From positions 533,380-597,379 of the forward strand of contig OX030967.1 of the NCBI GenBank assembly GCA_943735955.1: 64,000 nt of DNA, written 5' to 3'. A model generated the notes under the pieces. That model saw nothing but the letters and a program-made list of their open reading frames with translations. It was not told the DNA's origin and searched no databases. Source of the stretch: Piscicola geometra (taxonomy: Eukaryota > Annelida > Clitellata > Hirudinida > Piscicolidae). Made by a program: the position numbers and the translations under genes. The number at the start of each line of letters is the position of its first letter. Position 1 is the first letter of the stretch. Of this stretch, positions 46,046-60,450 are shown in pieces.

Positions 46046-47947
46046 ATTTATTCACAATATATAAAAAATTAACGTTTTAAATAAATAATAAGTATATCAG
46101 TTTGTCTGTGTGTTAAGTGGTGCAAACATTTTTTAGCAAATTCGACAAATAATAGCTGCCCTCCCCCTTTTTATTTGGGGCTGGATACCAGGGGCGGCGA
46201 GCTGCGGAAAATCTTGGGGGGGTCCTCCCCAGGGTTGGAATCAAAGAACCGGTATCGGCCAATACAGTACCAGCGATACTATTTAGTATTTTTTGCTGTA
46301 GTGCAAATTATTTGTGTATCAACTAATAATATTTGTATCACCAAACATTTAGAAAAAAAGTGTGATACTCAATAAAAATACTTTTCTATTGCCCCTTTGA
46401 GCGATCTGAAGAAAAACAATAGCGATTTCAGTACCTTTTATTATTTTTCATCTATATAAATTCAATCACAACAAGCCATCAAGCCATCAAATAAATGTTA
46501 TAACATCATGTTTTCCATTCATTTCTGAGTACAATAGTTTAAAAAATTACAAATAGATTTAAATTTGCCAAAGTTATAAACAAATATACATTGGAAATTT
46601 TTTTATACTCAGAGTGTATATTTAGATAACATAAAATACCCTCTCTGCCTGTCCTCCTGCCCTCTCCCCACAGCTCTTTTACTCCAATTTCCAAAAAGAC
46701 CCCTTCGAATGTCTGACCGACTAGCAAATTCTTCTGCTAACCTTTTCAAATCCAGACTGTCAAGTATATCCTGATGTGCATGACAAACGGCCAGTGAATT
46801 CAAGCGAGGCTGTGTCATAGGTGCACGCACCTGAGTCTTAAGACGCCGCACAGCACTAAAAGATTTTTTTTGCAGTACATGACGTTATTGGACACACAAG
46901 CATCAACCTGATCAATCTTTCAACCTAAGATAACAGATTTCTGACTTCGGTGATCATAGCTTGCATTATTGTGCTAAAGTTCATTCTGGTCTTTAAACAT
47001 AGTTAACTGTGAACAAAGACCAGTTTATATTAACTCACGATACTGCTTGCAAATATCATGGTTCACTTCACCAGTTAGCAAAATTGTCTCCAGCTGCAAA
47101 TAGGAACGCAAACCAAGAGAATCTCGATTGAACCATTTTGTGAGTTGCATGATTGCAATGTCTATGACAGCGTAATATGCTGCTCGATAATGTTCCTCTG
47201 ATAATGCCGGTCGATTTTTCAAACCTATTTAATATTTATAAAAAAATATTCAAAAATTAAAATGTGATAAAAGAAATTGAATGACGATAAATTTTTTTAT
47301 TTAATTTTGACCCGTTTAGAAGTTATGTCACTTTTAATGCTAACTTTTCATGCATCAAGTTACCATTGCATAGCGTTAAAAATATAGGCGGTGCGCACGG
47401 ACCCGTGTGGAAGGCATAAAAGTACTATTTGTACTATAACTTGAGTTTTAAATAACTAAATTCATTCAAACTTTTCATTTATTTGTATTTTCTAAAGAGA
47501 CAAAACTTTTGTTGTTTAAATAATTTTTCTTTAAAAAAAACATGAGTTATAGCGTTTTGAAAGAGATTATTTAGATTAAATAATATCGTTTTGCACAAAT
47601 AAACGTTTATTGAGTCGAAACTTGTTATGTATATGTAATAAGAGTTTAAATATTTTATTTATATTTTATAAATTCACAATTTGTATAAAAAAAAATATTT
47701 TTAAAAACACTTTTAAAAGACTTTTCAACAGTTTATTCAACATTAGGACTTGTCAACAACATTTGAGTCTTTTTAAACTTCTTTGCGAGTGAGTGGCTCT
47801 GAAAAGAGCCTTTTTGTATAAGGAAGAAAAGATAGCAACTATAAAGAATTAAAATGATAAAAGTATTGAAAACATTATATATAACGGTGCGCCTTATAAG
47901 TGCTTTTCAAAGGTAAACCCACAGTCCACTCTATAAATTATTGTTAT

Positions 47948-50334
47948 TTACTTAGTCTTTTCTTTCTTTTTAGCCTGATGCTCTTCAATCTGACTTGAGA
48001 GTGCTCCCCAAACCTGTCTTTCATGCTCTTGGTGGGTTTTCCGCAGTTCTAGTCCACCTTTTTGGGCTGCCTTCCAGAGTAACCTTTTTTTCTCATGAGT
48101 TAAGCCGTTGAACCAGTGTTTCAACTTAATTTGATTTCTCTTCAGCAAGTGAATGGAAGACAAATGAAAAAGTGAAGCATGTGGACGCCTTCTTTGACTG
48201 TTGTCCAAGTCTCCGAAGTGGTGCTCGCATGCCAGATTTGTCACATGTCCAAACTTTGTGGCGACAAAATCTGATCATTTGGTCTTTCTCCGAAATCACC
48301 ACCAAGCAGAAAATCAGCCAATTGTTTCTGCATAGTCCTTAGCATAGCCTTACAGCACGTTTCGACTGCAGGGAAGAGGATATCTTCCCTGCAGTCCACT
48401 GTCTGTGAAGAACTTGCCAAAAGAAACTTCTTTGAAACAGTTAACTCTTCTCCACACCAGTCAGGCTTATTCTCTAAGAGAAGACTAGGAGTCTCAATAC
48501 ACCTCTGTAAGAAAGACTCTAGCTTCTGGATAAAGGTGTACAACTGTAAATAGGGAATATCACCTCTTGTGACCAGCTCCCAATAAGGTCCAGTTACGGA
48601 AACATAAACTGAAGAAAACACCACAAGAAGATTTAGCACGATAGGACATTTCAGGTCATTCAATAATTTTTTAAGCTTTTTATTTAAAACCGTTACTGAG
48701 GTTAAAACTTTCCCAAACTCTTCATAATGAACCAATACTTCTGCCGCGGTCTGAAAAAGGCAATTAAACCTATTATCCCTATAATCACTTATAATTGATT
48801 TGATCTTATTCTTAGCACAATAAGCCTCCCATTGATCCCTTAAACCAGTATGCTTGCCTGAAGGGCCAAAACTATCAGACGCAGACCTAACAACCCTTTC
48901 AACAATGGTTGTTCCTTTCCTCCAGCATTTACTAATAAAACCTATTGAGCCTAAACCTACTCTCATTTTTTCTTCTAATAGTCTAATGTCTTGACAAACA
49001 TAGCGATTGAACCCTAACAATACATGAGCCATGCAATGAAAATGCATGACTTTTGTCTTTTCTTGTTGGTCTTGACAGCTTTCCAGCAGAAGATCCCTCC
49101 ACTCAATCAGTAGTTTGTCTGCCAGCTTCTCATTGCTGGCTCTGTCAGTCATCGTGAAGGAAAGCTTCTTCAAAGCCAATACGATGAAATTATCTGAGGG
49201 TTCTACTTGAGCTATCGCTTCTGCTACTTCTCCAAATCTTGTCTCAGTCACTTTTTGTATTGTCAATGCAGTCTCTCTTGCAACATGTGTAAATCCTAGA
49301 CTGACAACTTCCCCATTATCTAAAGTCACTAATGTATCGACTATTTTTCTTTTATTTCTTGATGTGCCATCTCGACTAAGACCGATGTGTTGTCCATCTT
49401 TTATTCTTTTACCTATGAAAGCCTTAGTTACAAACTGTGCTTCATTGCAAATAGTTTGGACTGTGGTTTTCCCTGGGAGCTGTTTATTGAGAAAAATTTT
49501 TATAAATATGTGCTCACTCACTGATTGAATTATTGGTCTTACTTTTTCTGTAGCCACTTCTAAACTTACTAACTTAATTACACATTCTCTTATATTATTT
49601 GGAAACAAACCACTAGTTGTTTTCGTAATAATATTACTTTTAATTGCTTTGAGTTTAACTAGTTTTTCATTAATTTCTAAAAGCTCTTCATTCCTATCAC
49701 AAAGAAGACTTTTAAGTTGTTCTAATTTTTCATTATTTATCTTTTTTTGGAATCTCCAAAACTTTTGATTAGCTCTATCTTTATTCACTAATCTTGCATT
49801 TAACTTTTGGACAGCTATTTTTCTTATCCTCTCAGAGACTAATTGAGAATTCAGGCTCAAAATCTTACAATTTTTATCAGTTAATTCACTAGTTAATAAC
49901 TTTAGTTGATTTTTATTTGGTTCAAATTTAATATTAATTACTTTTAACTTATGCAAAAGCTTTTTGTTATCACTTAAGGTTTTTATTAGCTTTTTTCTAA
50001 TATAGTGTGAATTTTTATCTCTTTTGTTAACGTTTTTAATAGAATAATGACCATTTCGTTTCTTAAGCAACTCATACTCAGAGATTTGCGTTGTAATATT
50101 TATTTCATTTAATTTTATACGTTTATTAATTAAATGTAGACTCAAACTCACCTTTTTGGAGTCAGTGTCTATTACAGCCATATTTTCAGTTTGTATCTCA
50201 ACAGTTCTAAAAGTTGTAGACAAAACTTTTTGCACATTTAAAGTAGGAGCAAATTCTTTATTTAAAAAATTAGCTAAATTATTACATCTATTTAGTTTAT
50301 TACTTCTAATAAGCTTCTTCTTTTTTTCTCCCAA
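47948..50334 (-). CDS. Transposase-like gene of unassigned superfamily, one frameshift
   Basis: A 697-codon frame (50334 to 48241) begins with a Lys/Asn-rich region and coiled-coil-like stretches. It then carries GQHIGLSRDGTSRNKRKIVD, FTMTDRASNEKLADKLLIEW and VMHFHCMAHVLLGFN. Close to its end the homologous sequence jumps one frame, to FVATKFGHVTNLACEHHFGD and RRRPHASLFHLSSIHLLK (48270-47948). The two Asp residues in SRDG and TMTDRA are candidate catalytic residues. From memory this resembles a family of uncharacterised proteins common in cnidarian and other invertebrate genomes; I cannot assign a superfamily. It sits inside the split hAT gene, so it arrived later. The start at 50334 is TTG and follows a possible acceptor (TTTTACAG), so an upstream exon is likely. 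Confidence 0.7.
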
Positions 50335-50339
50335 ACGAA

Positions 50340-50597
50340 CTATTTTACTGTAAAATTTTTACACCATATCGATTTAGAATTTGAATTAAGGATAGAGTCA
50401 CTCAAACATTTCAAAATGTCTATTAGCTTTATATCAGTTAAATTATTTTTCTTACAATAATTATATAACTCTAGCACCAAGCCAACGCTCAACACTTTCA
50501 GTTTTGGCAACTTTTCATTTTTTAAATTATCAAAACTAATGCCATATATTTTACATAATGGGCCAGGATATTCCATTTTGAAAATAATTTGCTTCAA
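50340..50597 (-). CDS. Small ORF, possible 5' exon of the transposase-like gene
   Basis: The 85-codon frame reads KIYGISFDNLKNEKLPKLKV and SVGLVLELYNYCKKNNLTDI and ends six bases before the long ORF. The LKV...LELYNYCKKNNL segment is loosely like a SAP-type helix pair. It shares strand with the long ORF, so it may be its first exon. I do not recognise it. Confidence 0.35.
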   Translation of the reverse strand: MKQIIFKMEYPGPLCKIYGISFDNLKNEKLPKLKVLSVGLVLELYNYCKKNNLTDIKLIDILKCLSDSILNSNSKSIWCKNFTVK

Positions 50598-52559: not shown

Positions 52560-53470
52560 TAATTTAAATTTATAAATATAAAAAGAAGAGTAAGTGGGTG
52601 AGTATTTTAGTAAGCAAAGAATAATTTTGCTTTAGGCAGCTATCACTGTAACTACTCCTACCCAAAATATATTACTGAATAAAAATTCTGTTTCATGCTA
52701 TGGTTGACGATTATTCTTGTATTAAGATAGGAGTTGAAAAATTATTGTATTTGTAAAACTGAAGGGTGACCATGTTAAGATGAACCCCAGAACCCCCCTA
52801 GCATTCCCGCCCATACATACTCACAATGTATTACTGTATTAGCATTTTGTATCCCATGGTTGACGATAAGGCTGGTATCAAAATGAGTTGAGAAATGTGT
52901 ATTTTTAAGAGTGAGAAAGTTCTTGTAGAGGTGGATCCCAGGACTCCCTCAGGATTCCCGCCTACGCCATAGTGATAAAAAAAGTAAGCGAAAGAGTATT
53001 TAAGTAAGCAAAGAATATTTTTGTTTTAGACAGCTATCACTATAACTACATATACTCACAATGTATTACTGAATAAACATTTACTTTTATGCCATGGTTG
53101 ACGATTATGCTCATATCCAAATAGAAATTTTTGAAAACAAAAAGGGGAAAAAGTGGGGGTTCCTAAAAATGGGGGGTCTTGACCCCAGGACTCCTCCAGG
53201 ATCGCTGCCCATGCTGGATACACCCATGTATTACTATATAAACATTCTGTTTTATGCCATGGTTGACGATTATGCTCCTATCAAAACAAGAGTTTGAAAA
53301 TATTTTTATTGAAAAAAGTGGGAGAAGGACACATCACTACCAAAAAGTGGGGGATGGAGGGCCAGACCCCAGGACTCCTCGAGGACTGCCTGCCCACAGT
53401 TGGCTGAACAGGGATTCGAGCTGGCGACCTTTAAGCTGCAGGTCCAACGACTTTACCATTTAAGCCAACC
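52560..53470. repeat. Degenerate tandem duplication, four to five units of about 160-240 bp
   Basis: The segment TATTACTGAATAAA followed by ATGCCATGGTTGACGATTAT recurs near 52670, 52830, 53063 and 53230, each time followed by a GATCCCAGGACTCC-type block. The CCATGGTTGACGAT core is the best kept. Confidence 0.75.
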
Positions 53471-53759: not shown

Positions 53760-53843
53760 ATGGCGGACGTAGTCATTTTTAGTCGTAAATTACAAAAGTT
53801 TGCAAGGTGGAAGATATCATCTAAAGAAAAAAAAGAATTATTG
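53760..53843 (+). CDS. REC114: REC114 exon 1 (start codon)
   Basis: ATG 53760-53762 opens MADVVIFSRKLQKFARWKIS, 28 codons, ending TTG|GTAAGA. Confidence 0.85.
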
Positions 53844-56800
53844 GTAAGAAAATAAAGATAGTTTTAATTTAAAAAAAGATCTATAAAATAATTTTCCAGG
53901 AAATTGATGGGTCAGTTAAGAATTTGACGATCACTCTTTACAACACTCATCATTTAGTCGTGAATTGCGAAAATGTAATTCAAGTGAGTTTTTAGTGCTT
54001 TCGCCCAAATATTATTTAGATTTAACAAGGCAATAAAAGGATGTTTTTATTCATTTCAAAATGTGTTTCGAAAATTAAAATTAATTTTAATAGTTTCGTA
54101 AAGTAATCAAAAAATGTAAGTAGTTAGAATAGATTAAGAATATTTTAAAAATATCTATAAAATATTTAAACTATTTCATAATCATAATTCTAAATAGATT
54201 ATGTGTAATAAAAGGAAAACGTTTTCTTGCTGAAAGAAGAGGACGGAATCCAAGTGCTTTTCCACGAAGAAAACATGCAATTCCACATCAAATTCAAGGT
54301 TTTGTTCAAAGCATTCTTCTTCTTTCTGTAATTTTCTTTCAAATTTCAAGGTGTCTTCTCTAACTTTCGTTTCGTCAAAAATGTCCGGTAATCAGTCATC
54401 TATGTCAAAACAATGTCCGCTTTTCGCATAATTGATGAAGGGAAGTCACAAAGCCTTTCAAAGCTCGCCTCACAAGAACCTCTGCACCACCAAAGGCGCA
54501 CATGCACAAGTTCCGCGTGAAGTTCTGCGCCAGAGGACCCCAGCAGAGCGCCTCTCAAGTTTGCGGCCAGTGCTGCAGTCTCTTGGCTTCGTACGTGCCC
54601 GTGAAGTCTCTCAAGACACGCTCTTCAGAGGTAGGAGTGCTGGTGGAAGAGGGTGGTGGTAGGGTGGAGAGGGGTTGGGAGGGTGGTGGTAGGGTGGGGA
54701 GGGGTTGATGAGGGTGGTGGTAGGGTGGGGAGGGGTTGATGAGGATGGTGGTAGGGTGGAGAGCGGTTGATGAGGGTGGTGGTAGAGTGGAGAGGGGTTG
54801 ATGAGGGTGGTGGTAGGGTGGAGAGGGGTTGATGAGGATGGTGGTAGGGTGGGGAGGGGTTGATGAGGGTGGTGGTAGGGTGGGAGGGGTTGATGAGGGT
54901 GGTGGTAGGGTGGAGAGGGGTTGATGAGGATGGTGGTAGAGTGGAGAGGGGTTGGGAGGGTGGTGGTAGGGTGGGGAGGGGTTGATGAGGGTGGTGGTAG
55001 GGTGGAGAGGGGTTGATGAGGGTGGTGGTAGGGTGGAGAGCGGTTGATGAGGGTGGTGGTAGGGTGGAGAGGGGTTGATGAGGATGGTGGTAGGGTGGGG
55101 AGGGGTTGATGAGGATGGTGGTAGGGTGGAGAGGGGTTGATGAGGGTGGTGGTAGGATGGAGAGGGGTTGATTGATGATGGGGTGGGAAAAGGGTGGTGG
55201 TGGGAAGGGTGGGAGGGGGGAAAGTTGGTTGATGATGGTGGGGGAGGGGAGGGGGGGAGGGAGTCTAATGAAGGGGTTCGAGGATGCATTAGATAGCATT
55301 GAGATAGAGCGTGAGGCCAGATAGATGCATCAGTGATGGCAATGACGACTGCATTGGCTGCAGCTGCGACAGTGCCATAGTGGTTTGTCGGTGAGAGCAT
55401 GCTGCATGCTTGGCAGATCGGACAGGAAAACCTAAGCGAATGATGCATGTGCAGATGCAAATTGCTCGACATAAAGATGGATATTAATGAGTACCTGCGT
55501 GAATATTAATGAGTACCATCATTAATATTAATGGGTCCTTTGCATGTTTTATTGTTGACGAATTTTGAACGAGCGAGTGTGAGTGAACATGAGGAACCGA
55601 CAGAACGCAGAAGTGCCTTGCTACACACCCGCTGGCCGACAGAGTCCCACCGTCTCCCTTTCGCGCCTGTCGCAGGTTCCTACTCGTTCTCAATCTCTGC
55701 TTTGTTCTTAGTCGTTCTCAATCTCTTCTTTGTTCTTTGCAATAACTTGTATGCAGTAGAGGTCGGACCGGGTGCCCGCTGGAACGGGAATGAAAATTAA
55801 GTTCGGGACGGAAAAGTCGGGAACCGGGAATAGGTTTTCGGGACGGAAACGGGAATTAATATTCAAATCGGGAACAGGAAAAACGGGAATACAAGTTATT
55901 GGGAGTGGATTTTTTAACAATTATACTTCAGCAAACTCCAAAGTATGGAAATCTCTATTTCATCGATACTCCGTACTTAAAATAAGTATTAAATGCAATG
56001 GAAATGTATAACGAAGCCACCATTGCGGTGTCAATGTCAAAATCTCCAACACTACATTTGAAGTTGTTATGGCGAGTCCAAATATTAGGGAGATTAGAAC
56101 AAATGGGTGATGATGAAAACTTGTTAGATGAAATCAAAATGTTCAGTTATATTATTTTTATTTTATAAAATAATACTTTGAATTTGGATGATTATGTTCC
56201 AAGTGATTGCTCAGCTGATCATTTTGACAAAAGAAAAGGTGCCCATTTATCTTATTCATATGGCAGCATCCCCAGTATGAAAAAATAATAAGAAAAGAGT
56301 TTGGAATAGAAAAAGAAATAAATACCAAGACTTTCATTAGAGAAAGTTTAATTCCGTTTTGTACAGCCAGACCAAGCTGCAGTGCTGTTGAGAAAAAAAC
56401 AAATGATGGTTATTTAGACCTATTTTTATACTCTCAAATTATAAGAATGATTTTATTTTTGCAGTTGTGGAGAATAAGAATATTGTCAAAAAACATATTT
56501 CTACCATTATTGGCGAGCGGGTTGCCTTAGATGGTAAAGTCGTTGGACCTGCAACTTAAAGATCGCCAGTTCGAATCCCTGTTCAGCCAACCGTGAGCTA
56601 TCATATACCTAGTGTGAGTGGCGCCTCAGTTGCGTGCCTTGGCGCATTATTTTTATTGAGGAATTAATAATAATGAAAGAGGAGAAAAATTCAGAAGAGG
56701 ATGAATTGTACAAATATTCACCATTTTTTTATTTTTTTAAAAATAACCATTATAGAGGTCAAAAGATCAACGTTGTTTTTAACTCCCTAAACTAAACTAA

Positions 56801-58867
56801 ATTACATCCCACCAAAATTGAAGATTATAAAAAAAATTCTTTTATCGGAGTAAATGAACAATTTTCCAATACTACAAGAAGTAGCCAACATTTTGTTTAG
56901 TATACCTTCAAGTTAGAGACCGACCGAAATTCGGTTCGGTTTCGGCGCCGAAATTGCCAATTTTCTTAGTTTCGGCAATTTTTCGGTTTTGGCCGAGTCT
57001 AATTTTACAATTTCGGCAATTTTTCGGTTTCGGCCGAAAATAATTTTGTCCTTTCGGCTCAATTTCGGTTTCGGCCGTAATAGGTCTCATATTTACCAAA
57101 AAACCGAAATTTTTATTTATTTATGTAGTTTATCGGATATATCTGTGTCCTCAATCGAACTATTAAGTTTGGGTTCGATTCTCTATTAGATATCTATTAG
57201 TTATCGTGGTTGATTGATTCATGGGTGTCATCAGACTAATTATTCGAATAACATATACAAGCATCTGGAACAACAATCATGTATTTGAAATTTAAGTAAA
57301 TTGGGATGCGTTCAATGATGATATTTAACAAAACTTTTTTAAGCAAATTCTATTTTTGTAAACATTTGTTTTAAAAATTTTTATTGTCAAAAGTAAGTAT
57401 CTATATCCTCAATCGAACTCGAATTATCAGGTTTGGGTTCGATTCTCATCTCCATTAGATATCTATTAGATATCGTGGTTAATTGATTTATTGGTGACAT
57501 AAGACTAATTGTTCGAATAACATATACAAGCATGTGGAATTATAGATATCCATTCTTTGAAAAAAAATTATATTTAAGTCGAAAGAACGAGAAGATTTGG
57601 CTTCGAATAATTAATTCAAAAATAAATTGTGAGAATGTCGTTGAATCCTATTTGGAAGTTTTTTTACAAAATGTCAGTCTGACTAAAGCAAAGCCTGTCA
57701 TCGCTAAATACTATTTTTTCATTTTTAATAAAAGTTGGAAATATTTTCGGTTTCGGCCGAAAATCTGATTACAATTTCGGTTTAATTTCGGTTCCGGCCG
57801 AAAATTGATATTCACTTTCGGCTTAATTTCGGTTTCGGCCGAAAATGGAATTTTAATTTCGGTCTTATTTCGGTTTCGGCCGAAATACAAATATCTGTTT
57901 CGGTCGGTCTCTACTTCAAGTTCTATTCTATGTGAATGGAATTTTTCAACATGTGGTCCTTTAACTTCAGACCCAAGATCATCTCATTTGAAAGCTAAAA
58001 CTCTTGACGGTGTAACCCGTGTGAAAATCAATATAGACTTGATTGAATTACTCAAAAACAATGATATACTTCAATACTTTCATTTCAATAAATATATGAA
58101 ATATTTATTTTTGTAAAGAAATATTTTCTGTTTTTCAACTAAGAAATTTTGAGAAATCTTAGGACTAGCAAGTTTGGGACCGGTGAAAACGGCAGTGAAA
58201 ATGAATGGAAGGACTTTTTTTCGGAAACGGGTTGGGACCGGGAATCGAGTTGCGGGGACGGGTCGGGATGAGAATCAAAATTTTGATGGCCCATCGGGGA
58301 CGGGACCGGGAATGAAAAAGCGTCCATGTCCGACCTCTAGTATGCAGGCTGACGAAGCATCCGATGCATCGTTTGGAAGCATGCATGCGACCACTGATGC
58401 GAGCTACTGCGCACTGAATACCAAGACTGCCTCAAATCTTTCAATCGAGCATTGCTTATATTCAAGTGAAGAAGCAAGTCGTAGGCAGGTATTGTGCTGA
58501 CATACATCTTTCCGTAGCGCCATCAACCTGCCAATGACAGATGGTGCTTAGCATGCCGAGCTCTGGAATTGCTTCCAACAACAACAACAACAACAACAAT
58601 AACAACAACAATAGTAGTAGTAGTACTGCAAAAAGGGATGAGAGAGACAAGATGGAGCAGTTGCCCTTAGCGTACCAGAGCGCTGAGTTGTGTTGCATGC
58701 AGGCAGGAAGGGCGGATGCAGATGGATGCATGCAGGACGACTTGCGCGTGAGTGATGCACAACACCTGCGGAGCGTCTTGAGTTTGTGCATGTGTGACGC
58801 GAACTTCCCTTCCTTCGTCGCCGAGGTTGACAAGGCGCTTCAGGCTATGATGGAAAGCCAGCTATGA
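53760..58867 (+). CDS. REC114: REC114, meiotic recombination protein (six-exon model)
   Basis: REC114 with MEI4 and IHO1/Mer2-type partners activates SPO11 to make meiotic double-strand breaks on chromosome axes. The N-terminal half is a PH-like domain and the C-terminal helices bind MEI4. The translation follows that plan: KLQKFARWKI, two beta-rich exons, HMHKFRVKFCARG and ASQVCGQCCSLLASYVPV (the RVQFSG...CCSCVQKLAQYI part of vertebrate REC114), a variable linker, and a C-terminal helix QHLRSVLSLCMCDANFPSFV followed by VDKAL. Exons are 53760-53843, 53900-53983, 54215-54298, 54454-54630, 58348-58488 and 58541-58867, all in phase 0, 897 nt, 298 residues. The vertebrate protein has about 260-290. 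Exon 4's start is the least certain boundary. A hAT element separates exon 5 from its original upstream intron. Confidence 0.85.
53900..53983 (+). CDS. REC114: REC114 exon 2
   Basis: After TTTTCCAG the frame EIDGSVKNLTITLYNTHHLV ends at CAA|GTGAGT, 28 codons. It matches the 'GYLVLTIVISGHFFI' strands. Confidence 0.85.
54215..54298 (+). CDS. REC114: REC114 exon 3
   Basis: ENVFLLKEEDGIQVLFHEEN, 28 codons, ends AAG|GTTTTG. The acceptor AAAAG lacks a strong polypyrimidine tract, but upstream in-frame TAA forces it. Confidence 0.75.
54454..54630 (+). CDS. REC114: REC114 exon 4
   Basis: RTSAPPKAHMHKFRVKFCAR and ASQVCGQCCSLLASYVPVKS are the most diagnostic REC114 match. The donor is TCAGAG|GTAGGA. 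The start is chosen at ACAAAG|CCTTTC to keep phase 0 and could shift by a few codons. Confidence 0.85.
54631..55180. repeat. 27-bp G-rich minisatellite near the REC114 intron 4 donor
   Basis: GGTGGTAGGGTGGAGAGGGG followed by TTGATGA repeats about 20 times, starting within 25 bases of the donor TCAGAG|GTAGGA, whose GGTAGG core is echoed in every unit. Confidence 0.93.
55181..55748. other. Unique part of REC114 intron 4
   Basis: No gene seen. A 90-bp stretch at 55590-55677 ends CGCAG|GTTCCT and could be read as a cassette exon, but it has no homology and is not needed for phase. The last 60 bases (TCTCTTCTTTGTTCTTTGCA and onward) are a good polypyrimidine tract leading to GTATGCAG. Confidence 0.45.
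56515..56655 (+). mobile_element. tRNA-derived SINE, family A, nested in the hAT element
   Basis: GAGCGGGTTGCCTTAGATGG (A box), GCCAGTTCGAATCCCTG (B box) and the GTGGCGCCTCAGTTGCGTGC body match the copy at 41025-41201. Confidence 0.85.
56912..57916. mobile_element. Second copy of the non-autonomous hAT-type element, nested
   Basis: It starts TAGAGACCGACCGAAA and ends GGTCGGTCTCTA, flanked by CTTCAAGT on both sides. It is an inverted-orientation relative of 11895-12924, with the same TTCGGCCGAAA ends. A 78-codon frame at 57532-57768 ([20 protein letters not shown]) is a protein-like relic of an autonomous ancestor. Confidence 0.92.
58348..58488 (+). CDS. REC114: REC114 exon 5, directly after a hAT insertion
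   Basis: The frame ADEASDASFGSMHATTDASY runs to SRRQ|GTATTG, 47 codons in phase 0. The acceptor GTATGCAG is also the target duplication of the hAT element. The linker is not conserved, so support rests on phase, splice sites and position. Confidence 0.65.
58541..58867 (+). CDS. REC114: REC114 exon 6 (stop codon)
   Basis: After AATGACAG the frame has a 12-residue poly-Asn tract from (AAC)n, then VSDAQHLRSVLSLCMCDANF and PSFVAEVDKALQAMMESQL, ending TGA 58865-58867. The C-terminal helix is the MEI4-binding part in the vertebrate protein. Confidence 0.82.
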   Translation: MVLSMPSSGIASNNNNNNNNNNNNSSSSTAKRDERDKMEQLPLAYQSAELCCMQAGRADADGCMQDDLRVSDAQHLRSVLSLCMCDANFPSFVAEVDKALQAMMESQL

Positions 58868-59600
58868 GGATGATGATGATGGCGATGATGATGATGGTGG
58901 TAATGATGATGATGGTGGTAATGATGATGATGATAATGATGAAGAAGAAGGTGATAGGGGAGTAATGCTGGGGAGGATAGTGAAGGTGATGGTGTAGTCT
59001 GTTGATGCGCCTGGTGGTTAGGGGTAGATGTAAGTTGTGGGAGGATGATGAAGCAAACGATGAACACTGGAGTTGTTGGGATTGTGAGAAGAAGAAGAAA
59101 GTGATAGGACGAATTGCGAGCTTATTACATTAAAAATGTTTTTTTAAAGTTTTTTTATTTATTAGAACTTAATTTTTATTGGTTTAAATTTAAATTGAAT
59201 GTCATTTGAATTCATAAAAAAATAAAATTCGGAAAAAGATTCAATTTAAAGAGCATTTATACTTGTTCCGTATAAGTTATATTATAACACAAATGAAGAA
59301 GGCTTCATCAGCTACATCAGTACGAACGACCCTCACACGCTGCGACCTTCACCTCAGTCTATAGCCGCCTTCTCTTATCTTGGAGTATCTGCATTTTTCA
59401 TGTTCCCAAATCTTAAATCAATCAAAAAATTTCGTCTTTCAATTGAAACAAACGACCCTAAAATACCAATATCTTTGTACAGATATTAAACTAACTACCA
59501 AAAATTCTAAATCGATAAATATTTTTGTGATAAACTATTTTCTTTTTTAATAAAATACAATTTAGTTGTTTTTGATAAACTTTTTGAAAAAGTAATGAAA
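58868..59600. other. REC114 3' flank and unassigned sequence
   Basis: GATGATGAT repeats (58868-58945) follow the stop codon, and AATAAA at 59221 is a possible polyadenylation signal. A plus-strand frame at about 59293-59430 (NEEGFISYISTNDPHTLRPS, then AAFSYLGVSAFFMFPN) looks protein-like but I cannot identify it. Confidence 0.35.
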
Positions 59601-60450
59601 TGTCTCCAACTGCGCCTCTCCAACTGCACTTCTCCAACTGCACCTCTCCAACTGCGTGTCTCCAACTGCACCTCTCCAACTGCACCTCTCCAACTGCATC
59701 TCTCCAACTGCACGTCTCCAACTGCACCTCTCCAACTGCACCTCTCCAACTGCACCTCTCCAACTGCATCTCTCCAACTGCACGTCTCCAACTGCACCTC
59801 TCCAACTGCACCTCTCCAACTGCACCTCTCCAACTGCACCTCTCCAACTGCACCTCTCCAACTGCACCTCTCCAACTGCACTTCTCCAACTGCACCTCTC
59901 CAACTGCACCTCTCCAACTGCACCTCTCCAACTGCACCTCTCCAACTGCACCTCTCCAACTGCACCTCTCCAACTGCACCTCTCCAACTGCATCTCTCCA
60001 ACTGCATCTCTCCAACTGCACGTCTCCAACTGCACCTCTCCAACTGCACCTCTCCAACTGCACCTCTCCAACTGCATCTCTCCAACTGCACCTCTCCAAC
60101 TGCACCTCTCCAACTGCACCTCTCCAACTGCACCTCTCCAACTGCACCTCTCCAACTGCACCTCTCCAACTGCACCTCTCCAACTGCACCTCTCCAACTG
60201 CACGTCTCCAACTGCATCTCTCCAACTGCACCTCTCCAACTGCACCTCTCCAACTGCACCTCTCCAACTGCACCTCTCCAACTGCACCTCTCCAACTGCA
60301 CCTCTCCAACTGCATCTCTCCAACTGCACCTCTCCAACTGCACCTCTCCAACTGCACCTCTCCAACTGCACTTCTCCAACTGCACCTCTCCAACTGCACC
60401 TCTCCAACTGCACCTCTCCAACTGCATCTCTCCAACTGCACCTCTCCACT
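59600..60450. repeat. 14-bp minisatellite, about 60 copies
   Basis: The unit CAACTGCACCTCTC varies as CATCTCTC, CGTCTCTC or CTTCTCTC. It contains no stop trinucleotide on either strand, so all six frames stay open for about 280 codons. None of those frames is a credible protein. Confidence 0.96.

What the first reader, a model, noticed from the sequence alone, without database searches (positions are those of the whole stretch)
55749..58347. hAT element inserted exactly on the REC114 exon 5 acceptor, duplicating the AG
The 8-bp target duplication GTATGCAG is the last eight bases of the intron. One copy stays next to the original polypyrimidine tract (55749-55756) and the other sits directly before exon 5 (58340-58347). 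The insertion therefore separates the exon from its branch site and tract by 2.58 kb yet preserves an AG at the exon border. Splicing must use element-supplied signals, exonise part of the element, skip exon 5 (in frame, phase 0), or the gene is damaged.
Basis: partly seen in the sequence, partly recalled or inferred. Interest (0 to 1): 0.8.

Follow-up and report, generated by a model that had tools for sequence, protein, structure and literature searches.

The report
Transposon parked on a splice acceptor
In a genome that is very likely that of the fish leech Piscicola geometra, a hAT transposon sits exactly at the start of a predicted exon of the meiosis gene REC114 and has duplicated the last eight intron bases with their AG, so the exon is probably still spliced, likely with signals supplied by the transposon's own end.

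Summary
A 2,583-bp element (55757-58339) has 12/12 terminal inverted repeats and 8/8 duplications GTATGCAG at 55749-55756 and 58340-58347. It is a hAT: three of four sister-copy ORFs tested carry the hAT dimerisation domain above Pfam's cut-off. The gene is REC114 (46.7 bits, cut-off 27). The assembly is very likely Piscicola geometra. Exon 5 (58348-58488) is inferred: a homologue has a linker at the same place, but the sequences do not align above shuffles. The copy differs from the majority of its sisters at 8.4% of sites and holds nested insertions, yet exons 5-6 stay open. Joining exon 4 to the original acceptor reads TAG at once; a new AG at the element's edge (58340) leads to a stop after three codons; 58348, skipping exon 5 and three rarer routes stay in frame. 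The context that the element gives to the exon-5 AG lies inside the range of acceptors inferred elsewhere in this genome. Most likely exon 5 is still used with element-supplied signals, and the original acceptor is a poison decoy. Maize Ds1 is the close precedent. No RNA was available. New member of a known kind.

The parts
54496..54630 (+). REC114 exon 4 (phase 0; donor GAG|GTAGGA)
   Evidence: start set to agree with homologue P0001; translation
54631..55748 (+). intron 4 up to the insertion, with the original pyrimidine-rich stretch at about 55676-55740
   Evidence: intron length before insertion 1,126 bp
55749..55756 (+). TSD copy 1, GTATGCAG: the original acceptor AG, now followed by TAG; also a weak GT donor candidate (CTTGTATGC, 5 of 9 consensus positions)
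55757..58339 (+). hAT element, 2,583 bp with nested insertions; TIR TAGAGGTCGGAC / GTCCGACCTCTA
55760..55942 (+). possible exonised hAT end: second AG of CAGTAG, open in phase, donor candidates at 55895 and 55943 (135- or 183-nt exon)
   Evidence: hypothetical
56513..56652 (+). SINE-like repeat inserted in the hAT
   Evidence: absent from sister copies; 8 repeats aligned; no tRNA or Rfam match
56914..57913 (+). nested hAT-like element, TIR 16/16, TSD CTTCAAGT (56906-56913 and 57914-57921)
   Evidence: 24 of 29 related loci show paired ends with an 8-bp TSD of at most one mismatch
58306..58339 (+). right end of the hAT: candidate branch-like ATGAA (A at 58315) and pyrimidine-rich TCCATGTCCGACCTCTA
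   Evidence: function inferred
58338..58340 (+). TAG made by the element's last bases and the first G of TSD copy 2; competing acceptor, stop after three codons
58340..58347 (+). TSD copy 2, GTATGCAG: AG directly before exon 5
58348..58488 (+). predicted REC114 exon 5 (47 codons, phase 0, donor CAG|GTATTG)
   Evidence: homologue has a linker at this place
58541..58870 (+). REC114 last exon with the conserved C-terminal motif and stop codon

Best explanation
A hAT transposon carries duplicated copies of GTATGCAG, the predicted last eight bases of REC114 intron 4, on both sides, and the gene probably still joins exon 4 to predicted exon 5 at 58348, likely using a branch site and pyrimidine stretch supplied by the transposon's right end. 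Shown by sequence: the insertion, the duplicated AG, the families, the open frames. Inferred: exon 5 itself, the branch site, the use of 58347, and that the gene still works. On this reading the transposon's end replaces the old branch site and tract. The original acceptor (55756) survives as a decoy whose use would give an immediate UAG and a 129-residue protein with only the N-terminal domain. The AG at 58340 would be a second decoy. REC114 would keep its full-length product, perhaps at reduced yield.
For: Exons 5 and 6 remain open although the element differs from the majority of its sisters at 103 of 1,224 sites with 15 indel events; if all of that came after insertion and the exons were neutral, the chance of both staying intact is about 0.005, or 0.07 if half is older. 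The AG at 58347 has 60% pyrimidines in the 20 bases before it, the same figure as the original acceptor, and a TGA branch-like site 32 nt upstream; REC114 introns 1, 2 and 5 have 55, 35 and 55%, and 17 acceptors inferred in four myosin genes range from 35 to 90%, median 50%, 10 of 17 below 60%. The element's last 34 bases, with these signals, are nearly the sisters' majority (1 change). Only 58348, skipping and a few rarer routes keep the frame.
Against: An AG at 58340 lies seven bases before the used one and would compete. The original acceptor and its longer tract survive upstream as a competitor. The branch-like site lacks the full yUnAy motif. In the cleanest 7 of the 17 inferred introns the median is 65% and only 3 lie below 60%. 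Exon 5 alone being open is weak evidence (0.20; 7.6% of shuffles are open), and its sequence does not align to homologues above shuffles. Low divergence of the right end is not significant as a sign of selection. Part of the 8.4% may predate insertion. No RNA evidence.
Confidence: 0.5

Rival explanations
1. Exon 5 is skipped: exon 4 joins exon 6 at 58541, losing 47 residues of a poorly conserved linker and leaving a 237-residue protein.
For: Exon 5 is 141 nt, phase 0; the skipped product is open. The linker differs in length and sequence among the three leech proteins.
Against: Exon 5 still has an open frame and a donor, and 58347 has an ordinary acceptor context for this genome.
Confidence: 0.2
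2. The insertion damages the gene: the old acceptor is still used and REC114 ends at the TAG that starts the element, so that this allele makes only the N-terminal domain.
For: The intron side of the old acceptor is untouched; exon 4 | 55757 reads a stop at once, 129 residues. REC114 is single copy in the assembly.
Against: Exons 5-6 are intact in spite of the element's age; a protein search with exons 1-4 found no truncated relative, which is weak because no protein of this species turned up in any of the three searches.
Confidence: 0.1
3. Stwintron: the GT of TSD copy 1 (55749) and the TAG at the element's right edge (58338-58340) first splice the whole element out as an internal intron, restoring the old tract directly before TATGCAG and exon 5, which a second reaction then uses.
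For: Both sites exist; the sister copies' TSDs begin GT in 11 of 17 and the element ends in CTCTA, so that such GT...TAG pairs come with many insertions. The donor GTATGC matches 5 of 9 consensus positions, like exon 3's GTTTTG. Introners that recruit the 5' site from the TSD and carry the 3' site are known (PMC9860276, passages).
Against: The donor is weak on its exon side; no intermediate RNA seen; a two-step route is not needed if 58347 works directly.
Confidence: 0.07
4. Exon start is inside exon 5: the AG at 58425 is or has become the acceptor, giving a 21-codon exon.
For: AAG at 58425 is in phase with 55% pyrimidines before it; the homologue's linker is 24 aa.
Against: The CAG|GCT that follows the strong pyrimidine stretch at the joined empty site would then have no purpose.
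Confidence: 0.06
5. The left end of the hAT is exonised: the old tract drives the second AG of CAGTAG (55759), and 45 or 61 codons of hAT sequence stand before or in place of exon 5.
For: The frame is open from 55760 and two donor candidates (6 of 9 positions each) keep phase 0.
Against: The first AG (CAG, leading to the stop) would normally be preferred (recalled); the donors are weak.
Confidence: 0.05

Closest known systems
Maize Ds1 (Ac/Ds, hAT superfamily) exonisation
   Same: A non-autonomous hAT whose termini supply splice sites to the host gene (3 donors, 2 acceptors within 35 bp of the ends) and which begins with a TAG stop codon (PMC5432752, passages read).
   Different: Ds1 sites are used in the reverse orientation and supported by RT-PCR in part; here the AG comes from the duplicated target itself, the intron existed before, and no RNA was seen.
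Introners derived from DNA transposons
   Same: TSD and TIR together can supply splice sites, including families that carry the 3' site and take the 5' site from the TSD (PMC9860276, passages read).
   Different: Introners make new introns within exons; this insertion lies in an existing intron. The paper's main text does not use the word hAT.
Stwintrons (intron within an intron)
   Same: An insertion that interrupts the acceptor region of an existing intron; acceptor-interrupted stwintrons are described as a class.
   Different: Described in fungi (PMC8469720, passages read); internal splicing here is hypothetical.

Membership tests
hAT superfamily | 8-bp target duplication with T at 2 and A at 7 (nTnnnnAn, recalled) | tested here: met
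   GTATGCAG 8/8 fits; 14 of 17 sister copies fit
hAT superfamily | short terminal inverted repeats | tested here: met
   12/12 TAGAGGTCGGAC
hAT superfamily | hAT transposase with C-terminal dimerisation region | tested here: met
   met in decayed form in 3 of 4 sister ORFs (26.2-31.3 bits, cut-off 21.4); not found in the window copy, which is interrupted; none of 8 genome loci with the domain (L040-L047) showed this TIR within 2 mismatches
REC114 | Pfam REC114-like over its cut-off | tested here: met
   46.7 bits against 27 for the spliced model
REC114 | match to solved REC114 N-terminal domains | tested here: met
   profile of the three leech proteins, E 4e-05 to 5e-05 to 6hfg, 7qwv and 6nxf
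Introner | element forms a whole new spliced intron in coding sequence | tested here: not met
   the insertion lies inside intron 4
Stwintron | two consecutive splicing reactions | not testable with these tools
   needs RNA; only the site sequences could be seen

The most novel reading that the evidence does not exclude
An animal hAT made its own intron on arrival: the GT that starts its target duplication and the TAG formed at its right edge let the whole element be spliced out first, restoring the old acceptor of REC114 intron 4. Because this family favours GTnnnnAY targets and ends in CTCTA, it brings ready-made GT...TAG ends to many of its insertions: a latent Introner in a leech.
Probability: 0.07. 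Interest if true: 0.75.

Novelty: new member of a known kind. Interest (0 to 1): 0.42.

Why it matters
It is a clean natural experiment on what a gene needs at a 3' splice site: branch site and tract were exchanged for transposon sequence while AG and exon were kept, in a gene whose mouse counterpart acts in starting meiotic recombination (recalled). If the exon is still spliced, the ends of this abundant family (1,356 and 1,367 first-look candidate places for the two ends, 40 of each scored) can act as acceptors, which would explain how such insertions are tolerated.

Tried and rejected
Second REC114 copy or empty allele: the exon 5-6 search found one place only and the junction pattern one place; the deposited alternate haplotype could not be read here. 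Truncated REC114 products: a protein search with exons 1-4 gave none at E up to 10. Conservation of the element's right end as a sign of selection: 1 of 34 changed against 45 of 382 in the rest of the right piece, while 18 sister copies show 18 of 610 against 410 of 7,097, so a quiet end is a family trait and proves nothing. Homology of exon 5 to the homologues' linkers: not above shuffles (0.19 and 0.57 of 2,000 shuffles reach the score). RNA fold of the new acceptor: ordinary (z 0.60). The other sister copy whose TSD ends in AG (L038) is followed by sequence with stops in all three frames. tRNA origin of the 140-bp insert: not confirmed.

Limits of counts. The sister copies were found by similarity to the window's ends, so the divergence values are relative. 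In one search the coordinates of exon 4 and acceptor 3 were off by one or two bases (its exon 4 translation, joined proteins, product lengths and intron-3 row are wrong); one search has the corrected model. In one search I left out three match rows (one each in L079, L080, L081) before pairing; of the 27 neighbouring pairs that remained, 17 gave a candidate intron, one of them flagged ambiguous and two (the CGAAG|GGC acceptors in L078 and L080) doubtful. Only 4 of the 17 myosin regions I had listed were read.

Full report
Setting. The window is C13:533380-597379 of the held assembly, 171,024,195 bases in 66 contigs. Held contig lengths of 9,301,023 (C7) and 6,573,335 (C16) equal the N50 and N90 printed for Piscicola geometra wrPisGeom1.1, and most other lengths seen agree with its table (PMC11134150, Genome sequence report section read whole, other parts as passages). 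The held copy is 71 kb shorter in all than the printed 171,095,250 bp, with C1, C10 and C17 slightly short. I take the species as very likely, by inference.

The gene. Six exons, all phase 0: 53760-53843, 53900-53983, 54215-54298, 54496-54630, 58348-58488 and 58541-58870 with the stop. The spliced model has 284 residues and matches REC114-like at 46.7 bits, cut-off 27. Protein searches with the full model and with an alignment found two homologues: P0001, 270 aa on a 997-bp contig and therefore presumably from spliced RNA, and Helobdella robusta P0002. P0001 agrees with the joins of exons 2-3 and 3-4 (the start of exon 4 was set to agree with it), then has 24 residues between SSE and MV, where exon 5 stands in the window with 47. 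The linker sequences do not align above shuffles. So an exon at this place is likely; its extent is inferred.

The insertion. TSD 8/8 and TIR 12/12. First-look candidates number 1,356 for the left end and 1,367 for the right end, of which 40 each were scored. Of 36 sister loci examined, 17 gave paired ends with a TSD of at most one mismatch: T2 with A7 in 14, GT start in 11, AG end in 1. Three of four sister ORFs carry Dimer_Tnp_hAT over the cut-off. Against its sisters the window copy holds three extra stretches: 56513-56652, 56726-56799 and a nested hAT-like element at 56914-57913 with its own TSD. The nested element is less diverged (K2P 0.040, median 0.016 for 29 others) than the outer one (0.060 to 0.135 by piece), in line with the order of insertion. 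With about 1,350 places in 171 Mb and, as an assumption of mine, some 100,000 acceptors, about one insertion of this family per genome would end exactly at an acceptor, so the coincidence needs no special cause.

What the insertion does to splicing, from the sequence. (a) 55756 keeps its intron side but is followed by TAG: 129-residue product. (b) 58340: the element's final CTCTA plus G makes a TAG acceptor; the product adds YAG and stops (132 residues). (c) 58347: full length, 284. (d) Skipping exon 5: 237 residues. (e) 55759, the second AG of CAGTAG: in-frame exons of 45 or 61 codons. (f) 58425, an AG inside exon 5, in phase. Two further in-phase AGs inside the element's right end (58272, 58320) have only 30 and 20% pyrimidines before them, and one at 58449 in exon 5 has 65%. 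Product (a) ends near the end of the stretch that matches solved REC114 N-terminal domains (profile 36-127) and lacks the conserved C-terminal motif.

Which is likely. The outer element differs from the majority of sisters at 103 of 1,224 sites with 15 indel events (five pieces, 22-30 copies each). If all of this followed insertion and exons 5 and 6 were neutral, both would stay intact with probability about 0.005, or 0.07 if half is older; exon 5 alone is uninformative (0.20). Hence the last exon is likely still in use, which leaves (c), (d) and the rarer routes. The new context of 58347 has 60% pyrimidines in 20 bases and a TGA branch-like site, not the full yUnAy motif, 32 nt upstream; the same scan found no branch motif 15-50 nt before the original acceptor. 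Seventeen acceptors inferred in four myosin genes range from 35 to 90%, median 50%; the cleanest seven have median 65%. REC114 introns 1, 2 and 5 have 55, 35 and 55%. The replaced context is therefore ordinary for this genome. The main weaknesses are the extra AG at 58340 and the survival of 55756 as a competitor, so I expect mixed products.

Relation to known systems. Maize Ds1 supplies acceptors close to its end and begins with TAG (PMC5432752, passages); Introners recruit splice sites from TSDs (PMC9860276, passages); stwintrons can interrupt an acceptor (PMC8469720, passages). In six literature searches none of the titles and abstract openings listed described a hAT on an acceptor in an annelid, and a search for REC114, MEI4 and leech together gave no paper. 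These cover one open-licence library only.

Verdict. Observation confirmed, interpretation supported with additions; a new member of a known kind, of moderate interest because cDNA would settle it directly.

Noticed in passing
55757-58339: The right piece of the hAT copy is about twice as diverged from its sisters as the left piece (48 of 415 against 22 of 380 sites); unexplained, possibly a mosaic of subfamilies.
   Followed up: partly
56914-57913: The nested element belongs to an abundant family (819 first-look candidates, 40 scored) with 8-bp TSDs in 24 of 29 loci examined and no obvious GTnnnnAY preference.
   Followed up: partly
56513-56652 and about 53400-53470: A SINE-like repeat with a B-box-like motif appears inside the hAT and, inverted, upstream of REC114; no tRNA or Rfam match.
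   Followed up: partly
54640-55230: Intron 4 is largely a G-rich minisatellite (units like GGTGGTGGTAGGGTGGAGAGGGGTTGATGA) just after the exon 4 donor.
   Followed up: no
59600-60450: A long CTCCAACTGCAC minisatellite downstream of REC114 is open in several frames on both strands.
   Followed up: no
48241-50358, minus strand: A 705-codon open frame without a Pfam match at E up to 0.1.
   Followed up: no
47771-47815, minus strand: Histone 3' UTR stem-loop just over Rfam's gathering score (34.3 against 34).
   Followed up: no
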